Of a DNA stretch of 64,000 nucleotides, positions 38 through 1,877 are shown one piece after another. The stretch covers positions 1 to 64,000 of the IMG/VR virus record IMGVR_UViG_3300027733_000042, one strand, 5' to 3'. The position numbers were made by a program, and so were the translations under genes. The notes under the pieces are model-generated. The model saw only the letters and a list, made by a program, of their open reading frames with translations, did not search any database and had not been told where the DNA came from. The stretch comes from a virus. Numbering within the stretch: the stretch's first letter is position 1; every line of letters starts with the position of its first letter.

Positions 38-129
38 TAAATTATTGAGGTAAAGTTGCCTAGAGTGTCGTTTTTGGTTTTTCCTATAAAAGTTAGAAGT
101 AACTCTTTAGCTTGCCACTCAATAATTTA
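38..129 (-). ncRNA. Stem-closed RNA element downstream of the Ro60 gene
   Basis: Positions 118-129 and 38-49 are perfect inverted repeats of 12 bp, so a minus-strand transcript would fold into a long stem closing a 68-nt loop. The element starts 7 nt after the tRNA-like element that follows the Ro60 gene, on the same strand. Metazoan and bacterial Y RNAs are roughly 100-nt RNAs closed by a stem of their two ends and are often encoded beside Ro60, so this could be part of a Y RNA. I do not see a clear Ro60-binding consensus in the stem. It may also be only a transcription-end structure. Confidence 0.35.
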
Positions 130-136
130 TTTTTGT

Positions 137-238
137 TACCGAAGCAGGATTCGAACCTGCGGTCATTGGAGTATTGGTGTTAGGTCACCACTCCTCAGAC
201 TATTCCTAATTAGCATTAAGCCGCTCTGCCATTCAGCA
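137..238 (-). tRNA. tRNA-like element with aberrant anticodon region; possible Y-RNA tRNA mimic
   Basis: On the minus strand there is a 7-bp acceptor stem (232-238 with 137-143, two G-U pairs), a D arm with GCA/TGC stem and the GCGG loop motif, and a perfect T arm (GCAGG, loop TTCGAAT, CCTGC). Between D and T arms lie 52 nt, where a class I tRNA has about 23 and a class II tRNA about 30-38. No standard 5-bp stem with a 7-nt loop fits there. The stretch instead folds as a hairpin GGAGT-GGTG/CACC-ACTCC. It starts 13 nt after the Ro60 stop codon on the same strand. It may be a degenerate Ser/Leu-type tRNA, or a tRNA-mimicking Y RNA like bacterial YrlA. Confidence 0.6.
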
Positions 239-251
239 ATCTTGTGATTGA

Positions 252-1877
252 TTAGATCACAATTTTCTTCACCTTATCTAGGTGGTAATTTGGATTGAAC
301 TCGCTTTTCGCGATATCATCGAACATTGAATATCCGTAACCGTAGTAGAAGCGAACTTTATCTCCTGCGAGTTGAGTTGTTCCATATGCAGCTAAGTCTA
401 CTGAGTACACATATGGGCTACCACATGCTTTTACGTAACTCATATAAGAGCTATAACTTGATCCGCGATTACATTCGTTATCAGAAAGGATGAAAATACG
501 ATCATACTTACGTCCTGATCTTTGTGCTTCCATCCAAGCTGAAGCTAAACTTGTACCACCCATGCTTGATTTCATCGCTGATGCGATTGAGAATACGTCA
601 GAATTTGCATTCCATTTTACATATTCAGCATGTGAACCGAAACGGATTATATCTCCATTTGTTGCCTTTGCAATGGTTGCTGCGATTAACGCTGCTTTAT
701 CCATACAGGTGCTAGTATAGTTTGTCTTACGCATTGGGTCCAATACTCGAGTAGTCATAGATCCTGAGAAATCGACCATCACCAATGTTCTACCTGGAAG
801 CATCTCGGCCAAATTTGGAACAGCCGATTCATAACCTGCAAGTAATGCTTTCGCAACCTTACGGCTATCTACCGTGCTGAACTCAGCATTAGTTACTTCG
901 TGTGCTAAATCTAATTGGTATGGCATAACCTTACCTTTTCGGATCGATTCCGCATCTGAAAGTAGAGCACATAGTTTATCAACAGTTGTTGCTTTGCTTA
1001 CAGTTTTCAACACGTTTCTGATGTTTCGGATAGCTGCAAGAATTCCAAGTTTGTTCTCAGTTAAGAGGGCATCCCAGTTTTCTGCCTTTGCTTCTTTCAA
1101 CACTTCTGCGGCTTTTGCTTCATCGAGCTTTCCTTCTTTGACAGCTTTTGCAACTTCTTGACCAGCATCAGATTGAGCAACTTCCCATGTATCTGCTGAA
1201 ACGTTTTCACCTTTCATGATGGCAGAAAGAACTGCTACTTTTTCTCCGTTCACATCTGCAAGAGCTTTAGACTCCTTTGGATTTGGGTGAACTAGGTTGA
1301 TGACGTCGACTAGTGAACTTTTATATTTCAATAGTGAGTAAGAATCTAATTTTTCAAGTGCTTCTTTGAAACCTTTCTTCATTGCATTGGTCACGGCAGT
1401 CTTGTTCATTGCTGAGAAGCATGCGATAATTTCTGACATGTCGTCTGGTCTGAAAAGAGTTCCGCCTGACTGTGTTTTCTTATTCCACAATGAGTAGAAT
1501 CGTTTTGCCCAATCTTGTCCAGCACAGTGTGGTGCTAAGTAGCTTGCAGCTAAATGGTTTACTGAGCGCATTCCTTCGCCAACGCAACGTGAATACACGA
1601 TACATTGTGCAGTGAAGTACGCATCTTCTTTTGCACAGTCATCAATTAGAGTTTTAATCTCCTTCATCGTTTCAGTTTCTGAACGATAGAATTGGTTCTC
1701 TAATTTTAGAGTGTTTAACATAGTCAAGAGCTTCAACCACTTATCAAGTGAGTAAGCATCATTTCCTTGACGGTTCTTAGCGTCTGGTTTTGGCAGGTTT
1801 ACAGCCTCAACTAGCTTCACATCAGGTTGCATAGTAGCAAGTGTGTTGCGAAGATTCTTGTTTCTGAATTTTGTCAT
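252..1877 (-). CDS. rsr: Ro60/TROVE-domain RNA-binding protein
   Basis: 541 aa, close to the usual Ro60/Rsr length. The N-terminal about 350 residues have the alpha-helical HEAT-like TROVE pattern, including the YSRCVGEG segment near residue 95. The C-terminal part is a von Willebrand A domain with a complete MIDAS: DFSGS at 369-373, GGT at 440-442 and LSD near 466. Ro60 proteins form a ring that binds Y RNAs and misfolded RNAs. In bacteria they act in rRNA and tRNA quality control with exonucleases such as PNPase. The gene is followed immediately by a tRNA-like element and a stem-closed RNA, both candidates for its RNA partner. The family call is firm; the role in infection is inference. Confidence 0.93.
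   Translation of the reverse strand: MTKFRNKNLRNTLATMQPDVKLVEAVNLPKPDAKNRQGNDAYSLDKWLKLLTMLNTLKLENQFYRSETETMKEIKTLIDDCAKEDAYFTAQCIVYSRCVGEGMRSVNHLAASYLAPHCAGQDWAKRFYSLWNKKTQSGGTLFRPDDMSEIIACFSAMNKTAVTNAMKKGFKEALEKLDSYSLLKYKSSLVDVINLVHPNPKESKALADVNGEKVAVLSAIMKGENVSADTWEVAQSDAGQEVAKAVKEGKLDEAKAAEVLKEAKAENWDALLTENKLGILAAIRNIRNVLKTVSKATTVDKLCALLSDAESIRKGKVMPYQLDLAHEVTNAEFSTVDSRKVAKALLAGYESAVPNLAEMLPGRTLVMVDFSGSMTTRVLDPMRKTNYTSTCMDKAALIAATIAKATNGDIIRFGSHAEYVKWNANSDVFSIASAMKSSMGGTSLASAWMEAQRSGRKYDRIFILSDNECNRGSSYSSYMSYVKACGSPYVYSVDLAAYGTTQLAGDKVRFYYGYGYSMFDDIAKSEFNPNYHLDKVKKIVI

What the first reader, a model, noticed from the sequence alone, without database searches (positions are those of the whole stretch)
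38..1877. Phage Ro60 with adjacent tRNA-like and stem-closed RNAs: possible Ro60-Y RNA system
A complete Ro60 protein is followed within 13 nt by a tRNA-like RNA whose anticodon region is replaced by a 52-nt insert, then by a stem-closed RNA. Bacterial Y RNAs of the YrlA type carry tRNA-like domains and are encoded beside Ro60. Together with tmRNA, bS21 and tRNAs this suggests phage control of RNA quality control.
Basis: partly seen in the sequence, partly recalled or inferred. Interest (0 to 1): 0.82.

Follow-up and report, generated by a model that had tools for sequence, protein, structure and literature searches.

The report
Phage Ro60 with tRNA-mimic Y RNAs
A virus of bacteria carries the ring protein Ro60 together with small "Y" RNAs that imitate transfer RNAs; in its relatives many imitate whole tRNAs, anticodon included, which suggests they act as decoys or bait for proteins that attack or bind tRNA.

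Summary
The YrlA-like RNA lies upstream of Ro60 at 2341-2495 (-): a circularly permuted tRNA module in a long basal stem. A covariance model built without the window finds it at 137 bits (E 2.9e-35). The "stem-closed RNA" (38-129, -) is a second, module-less Y RNA (64.7 bits, E 1.6e-13). A third starts at 9-1 (-) and is cut by the record's end. The tRNA-like element at 136-238 is not a Y RNA; it resembles T5 "tRNA-like stable RNAs". In 28 related phage loci I found about 90 Y RNAs with one covarying stem. They carry permuted or linear tRNA bodies with anticodon arms; U33 is kept in 69 of 70 loops while the anticodon is hypervariable. Rfam's YrlA has no anticodon arm, so this is a new variant of a known kind. 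Mechanism, inferred: Ro60-anchored, non-translatable tRNA decoys or baits, perhaps against anticodon nucleases (about 0.4); a PNPase tether of RYPER type is the main rival.

The parts
2341..2495 (-). Y RNA 1, YrlA-type: basal Y stem plus circularly permuted tRNA module with an anticodon-like hairpin
   Evidence: model R1 built without the window: 137.1 bits, E 2.9e-35; permuted finder; fold
2468..2475 (-). conserved GTTACTTC of the 5' Y-stem strand (inner helix 2475-2481 region pairs with 2354-2360)
2451..2463 (-). anticodon-like hairpin UCC-AUUAUAA-GGA (loop 2454-2460; U33 and triplet UAU in tRNA numbering)
   Evidence: covariation of the middle pair CG/GC in relatives
2427..2443 (-). T arm
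2395..2426 (-). acceptor helix CCACGGC/GCCGUGG closed by an 18-nt cap loop (2402-2419)
   Evidence: in relatives 6 of 7 pairs change on both sides
2378..2394 (-). positions 8-9 and D arm
252..1877 (-). Ro60 (TROVE + vWA), 541 aa
38..129 (-). Y RNA 2, module-less: same bulged stem (TGGCAA ... GTTACTTC) with a short loop; outer 12-bp helix 38-49/118-129
   Evidence: model R3 built without the window: 44-124, 64.7 bits, E 1.6e-13, only hit
1..9 (-). first bases (ATCAGGTAG) of a third Y RNA, cut by the record's end; in relatives a linear-tRNA Y RNA starts here
136..238 (-). tRNA-like element in normal order with a 51-nt insert (161-211) in place of the anticodon arm; judged not part of the Y RNA set

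Best explanation
Identity (about 0.95): a phage Ro60 locus with its own Y RNAs. One is of YrlA type: a basal stem for Ro60 plus a circularly permuted tRNA module, here with an added anticodon-like hairpin. One is a bare Y stem. A third is cut off by the record's end. In relatives the same stem also holds complete, non-permuted tRNA bodies. Mechanism (about 0.4, inferred): Ro60 holds and protects these RNAs by the bulged basal stem; their tRNA faces (elbow, D arm, anticodon arm) are shown to tRNA-binding proteins; the acceptor end is sealed by a cap loop or runs into the stem, so they should not be charged or translate. They would act as decoys or baits, most likely for anticodon nucleases of host defence or of rival elements. 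Shown: the stem, the modules, the anticodon arms with U33 and hypervariable anticodons, the neighbourhood of Ro60. Inferred: Ro60 binding, lack of charging, the target, the benefit.
For: R1 hit 137.1 bits without the window in the model (T5 control at most 15.6); R3 hit 64.7 bits; outer Y-stem helix pairs in 296 of 315 cells against shuffled mean 165, maximum 191; covariation of permuted and linear forms; U33 in 31 of 31, 20 of 20 and 18 of 19 arms found by stem pairing alone; anticodon triplet the most variable region (mean 1.43 bits) with U33 at 0; an inhibitor role against an anticodon nuclease was already suggested for YrlA (PMC7790460, passage); TROVE gene early in crAss001 (PMC10136315, passage).
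Against: No expression, binding or cleavage data. Module bodies are not closest to tRNAs of the same anticodon (7 of 72), so they are not faithful copies of given tRNAs. The anticodon stem of the window's own RNA has only 3 inner pairs. Folding energy of Y RNA 1 is not exceptional (16 of 200 shuffles as good). Some modules have no findable anticodon arm, and Y RNA 2 has no module at all. No anticodon nuclease or RNA-repair gene was seen among 30 larger ORFs scanned.
Confidence: 0.6

Rival explanations
1. RYPER-type tether: the Y RNAs link phage Ro60 to host PNPase (or another RNase) and steer decay of structured host RNA; the tRNA-like module is only the handle or gate.
For: Established for D. 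radiodurans Rsr, Y RNA and PNPase (PMC8394870 and PMC8058203, passages). Same architecture of stem plus tRNA-like domain.
Against: Does not explain intact anticodon arms with U33 and rapidly changing anticodons, nor several different modules in one phage.
Confidence: 0.3
2. Permuted and embedded tRNA genes: the RNAs are processed into working tRNAs, as with permuted tRNA genes of archaea and algae (recalled).
For: Several cap loops begin with a base plus CCA, e.g. in L012, L016, L026; anticodon arms look functional.
Against: The window's cap starts ACAAC; the same stem encloses RNAs without any tRNA part; anticodons do not match bodies; linear forms have a 4-5-bp acceptor running into a GNRA hairpin and the Y stem.
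Confidence: 0.05
3. Y RNA 1 is a chance neighbourhood of two broken tRNAs.
For: It lies in a tRNA array; its folding energy is ordinary.
Against: 22 of 40 pairs covary on both sides, acceptor helix 6 of 7; 137-bit hit by a model built without it.
Confidence: 0.01

Closest known systems
YrlA, bacterial Y RNA (Rfam RF02553; PDB 6CU1)
   Same: Beside Ro60; basal stem from 5' and 3' ends; module in the order T arm, capped acceptor stem, D arm (Rfam consensus shown); circular permutation relative to tRNA (PMC11472068, passages).
   Different: Below Rfam's cut-off (0 of 12 records). Rfam's consensus has no hairpin at the anticodon place; these RNAs add one, and relatives also hold linear tRNA bodies.
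Ro60 of Thermus phage phiLo (PDB 9l5y) and D. radiodurans Rsr (2nvo)
   Same: Best structural matches of the predicted Ro60 (E 5.9e-13 and 2.5e-12).
   Different: About 16-20% sequence identity; their RNAs were not examined here.
Ro60 phages CcrPW, Atuin, csAssE-Sib
   Same: R1 finds Y RNAs near Ro60 at 60, 54 and 43 bits; related GTTACTTC motif.
   Different: No Y RNA is annotated in the stretches fetched; csAssE-Sib's 'tRNA-Lys' lies inside a Y stem.
T5 RNA1/RNA2 'tRNA-like stable RNA' (for the element 136-238)
   Same: Normal tRNA order with a long insert; the same rule finds T5 RNA2.
   Different: No sequence likeness shown; insert differs.

Membership tests
Ro60/Rsr (TROVE) | TROVE and vWA_Ro60 domains over Pfam cut-offs | tested here: met
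   34.7 against 23 and 28.0 against 27.7 bits
Ro60/Rsr (TROVE) | vWA metal site DxSxS | tested here: met
   D369, S371, S373 invariant in 15 of 15 and 22 of 22
Ro60/Rsr (TROVE) | Ro60 fold | tested here: met
   13 matches at E<=0.001, all of them TROVE/Ro60/Rsr entries
Ro60/Rsr (TROVE) | binds Y RNA | not testable with these tools
   needs a pull-down
YrlA, for 2341-2495 | encoded beside Ro60, same strand | tested here: met
   464 nt upstream of the Ro60 start, minus strand
YrlA, for 2341-2495 | basal stem of 5' and 3' ends | tested here: met
   296 of 315 outer-helix cells paired in the family; window stem complete
YrlA, for 2341-2495 | tRNA-like domain in permuted order T arm, acceptor, D arm | tested here: met
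YrlA, for 2341-2495 | Rfam RF02553 over gathering score 69 | tested here: not met
   no hit there even at E<=10; best of 12 records 39 bits. So it is called YrlA-like, not a member of RF02553
YrlA, for 2341-2495 | no anticodon arm (Rfam consensus) | tested here: not met
   hairpin UCC-AUUAUAA-GGA present; consensus without it
YrlA, for 2341-2495 | bound by Rsr, modified by DusA/TruB | not testable with these tools
   biochemistry needed
YrlA / Y RNA, for 136-238 | Y stem and permuted module | tested here: not met
   R1 20.8 bits through the T arm only; no R3 hit; no Rfam YrlA hit
tRNA, for 136-238 | acceptor, D and T arms; Rfam tRNA cut-off | tested here: met
   32.0 against 29 bits
tRNA, for 136-238 | anticodon arm with 5 bp, 7-nt loop, U33; ARAGORN call | tested here: not met
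   only 4 bp TTAG/CTGA with loop GAATAGT; ARAGORN silent

The most novel reading that the evidence does not exclude
Ro60 phages run an anticodon-display system: one Ro60 holds a set of non-translatable tRNA mimics built in three topologies (linear, permuted at the D/anticodon junction, permuted in the variable loop), whose anticodons are swapped rapidly on a fixed scaffold, as decoys or baits against anticodon nucleases.
Probability: 0.35. Interest if true: 0.9.

Novelty: new variant of a known kind. Interest (0 to 1): 0.72.

Why it matters
Why bacterial Y RNAs mimic tRNA has stayed open. Here the mimics carry anticodon arms with variable anticodons, so a decoy or bait role becomes directly testable in cultured phages (CcrPW, Atuin). 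It also warns that some phage "tRNAs" in databases, such as the csAssE-Sib tRNA-Lys, may be parts of Y RNAs, so that tRNA counts of such phages can be too high.

Tried and rejected
Tried without result: Rfam at gathering score finds no Y RNA. Matching modules to phage tRNAs to show recent capture failed: 7 of 72 share the anticodon of the best tRNA; linear 5 of 31 against shuffled 2.3, permuted 2 of 41 against 1.6 (the tRNA set still held a few Y RNAs that my finder missed). Folding energy alone does not single out Y RNA 1. A pattern from the 136-238 insert found nothing in viral contigs. Other GTTACTTC sites in the record: 37893 and 84094 gave no Y RNA with the finder; 892 (+) lies inside the Ro60 gene. 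Alignment A4 (8 rows) was ragged; A5 (4 rows) was used instead for model R3. One search failed by a script error and was rerun.

Rows dropped and limits: of 98 candidates 6 were left out before the stem counts: 2 on the minus strand of loci, 1 too long, 3 with a misplaced 3' arm. The finder itself asks for inner-helix pairs, so only the outer helix is an independent test. Models R1 and R2 were run on 55 of the 90 loci L071-L160. R2 also matches ordinary tRNAs (T5: up to 38.2 bits partial, 36.5 full length), so only full-length hits of 55 bits or more are read as Y RNAs: 15 hits in 14 of the 55 sources. The classes 'noT' and 'T?' (61 of 160) surely hold some false ones.

Literature: the library holds only CC-licensed PMC papers. 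The main Y RNA papers (Chen 2014, Sim and Wolin 2018, Sim 2020) are not held, so I cannot say that anticodon arms or linear modules are absent from print; the searches listed no such report, judging by titles, abstract starts and the passages I read. That phages carry YrlA is in print (PMC7765460, passage; Chen 2014, recalled).

Full report
Observation. The record is 90,786 bases long and begins at window base 1.

Ro60. Pfam TROVE and vWA_Ro60 pass their cut-offs. The DxSxS site is invariant in 15 of 15 aligned proteins. The predicted structure (pLDDT 81.2, pTM 0.57) matches Ro60 structures best: 9kop, the Ro60 of Thermus phage phiLo (9l5y) and D. radiodurans Rsr 2nvo.

Y RNA 1. At 2495-2341 the tRNA arms come in the order T arm, acceptor 3' strand, 18-nt cap, acceptor 5' strand, D arm: a circular permutation. 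Shuffled sequence (1.06 Mb, both strands) gave no such hit. A covariance model built from 11 relatives without the window finds the window RNA at 137.1 bits, E 2.9e-35. In the tRNA-rich stretch of T5, which served as a control, the best score is 15.6 bits. In the 11 relatives 92.0% of cells pair (shuffled 76.8%), 22 of 40 pairs have changes on both sides, and in the acceptor helix 6 of 7 do.

Y RNA 2. The stem-closed RNA shares the stem motif (TGGCAA, GTTACTTC) and has a 12-bp outer helix. A model from four relatives that carry such an RNA just after Ro60 finds it at 64.7 bits, E 1.6e-13, with no other hit at E<=10 in 64 kb and none in the T5 stretch.

Third Y RNA. The last bases of the minus strand (ATCAGGTAG, after a GTTCTTTGA motif) match the start of the linear Y RNA that follows in relatives such as L002, L003 and L011.

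The family. Round Ro60 in 28 related loci and the window a motif finder gives 98 candidates, 96 on the Ro60 strand; Markov-shuffled sequence of twice that amount gives 4. In 92 kept RNAs (63 distinct outer helices) the outer helix, not used for finding, pairs in 296 of 315 cells; shuffled mean 165, maximum 191. The bulge motif T[AG]G[CT][AG]A is present in 92 of 92, though the finder asks for a looser form of it. The vertebrate Ro60 site is likewise a helix with a bulged cytidine and a bulge opposite (PMC4726728, passage); the likeness is my inference.

Modules. Between the stem strands lie (a) permuted tRNA bodies, cut either between D and anticodon arms or in the variable loop, (b) linear tRNA bodies with D, anticodon and T arms, and (c) short loops. 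Linear RNAs covary too (96.9% of cells against 86.3% shuffled, 22 of 38 pairs). Over all loci (160 distinct candidates, spurious ones included) anticodon arms found by stem pairing alone have T at position 33 in 31 of 31 linear and in 20 of 20 and 18 of 19 permuted modules, and a purine at 37 in 30 of 31, 19 of 20 and 19 of 19; 5 of 36 linear and 24 of 63 permuted candidates had no such 5-bp arm. The window's own RNA belongs to a subtype with a 3-bp inner stem, found in 12 RNAs. In 12 linear RNAs the triplet 34-36 has mean entropy 1.43 bits, more than any other region, while position 33 has none; L004 and L007 are 92% alike elsewhere but read TAA and TCA. The Rfam YrlA consensus, printed, has T arm, acceptor stem, D arm and closing stem but no hairpin at the anticodon place.

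Elsewhere. R1 scores 25 bits or more in 3 of 6 fetched loci of named Ro60 phages (CcrPW 60, Atuin 54, csAssE-Sib 43) and in 2 of 7 MAG contigs with Ro60 (Gammaproteobacteria 78, Dehalococcoidia 58), whose cellular or viral nature I did not settle. The Gammaproteobacteria RNAs also seem to hold an anticodon arm (by eye), so this trait may not be confined to phages. The 'tRNA-Lys' of csAssE-Sib sits inside a Y stem.

The element at 136-238. It has normal order, a 7-bp acceptor, D and T arms, and a 51-nt insert with helices GGAGTG/TACTCC and TGGTG/CACCA and a possible pseudoknot TTAGG/CCTAA. It has no proper anticodon arm. Eleven distinct elements of this kind occur in 8 of the 106 loci given to the script (many loci overlap in contigs), and the same rule finds RNA2 of T5, annotated as a tRNA-like stable RNA of unknown function. 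I read it as such an RNA, separate from the Ro60 set.

Mechanism. Read in passages: the basal stem of YrlA binds Rsr and RYPER joins Rsr, Y RNA and PNPase (PMC8394870; PMC8058203); YrlA's tRNA-like domain was suggested as a competitive inhibitor of an anticodon nuclease (PMC7790460); the TROVE gene of crAss001 is transcribed early (PMC10136315). My inference: the sealed acceptor end, intact anticodon arms, variable anticodons and several modules per phage fit decoys or baits better than a plain tether. The failure to match anticodon and body means that they do not copy given tRNAs. All of this is untested.

Novelty. Ro60 in phages and YrlA in phages are known. New as far as my searches reach: Y RNAs with full anticodon arms, linear tRNA modules in the Y stem, and anticodon variability on a fixed scaffold. 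I file it as a new variant of a known kind.

Noticed in passing
window 136-238 (-); L008 2609, 3056, 6733; L010 6180, 6440; L012 8127; L112 8701; L121 158; L138 2962; L140 5142: tRNA-like elements in normal order with 51-106-nt inserts where the anticodon arm should be; most share AGTCAGG...CCTGACT acceptors and a Leu-like D arm. The L008 pair 2609/6733 seems to hold a covarying pseudoknot (GCGT/ACGC to GTGT/ACAC, by eye). They recall T5 RNA2.
   Followed up: partly
window 21-29 (-) and upstream of Y RNAs in relatives: boxA-like GTTCTTTGA just before Y RNAs: TTCTTTGA within 40 nt upstream in 16 of 130 against about 1 expected. It may mark antitermination of these RNA operons.
   Followed up: partly
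window 1910-2299 (-): 129-aa ORF just upstream of Ro60, no Pfam family over cut-off; 40-52% identical ORFs lie near Ro60 in L002, L007, L010, L011, L012, L026 and L127. A possible partner protein.
   Followed up: partly
L072 4778-4851 (OR575929.1): GenBank 'tRNA-Lys' of phage csAssE-Sib lies inside a Y stem (51.8 bits with R2); it may be mis-annotated.
   Followed up: partly
cap loops in L012, L016, L026 (T arms at 4864, 3002, 1236): The cap of the permuted acceptor often begins with a base plus CCA, as if a tRNA 3' end had been kept.
   Followed up: no
L003 6970, L006 7223, L026 7197, L076 3375: One permuted subtype nearly always shows anticodon GUU, also in the distant Caulobacter phage CcrPW.
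   Followed up: no
window 37367-37750 (+): Phage tmRNA with tag DEKSTFTFEDAMSFVGADYAVSA.
   Followed up: no
window 31648-34618 and 43793-44578 (-): Sigma-70 region 2 protein, T4-type terminase and gp15-like protein: a T4-like myovirus. MAG contigs with Ro60 relatives bear Bacteroidota labels, which hints at the host.
   Followed up: no
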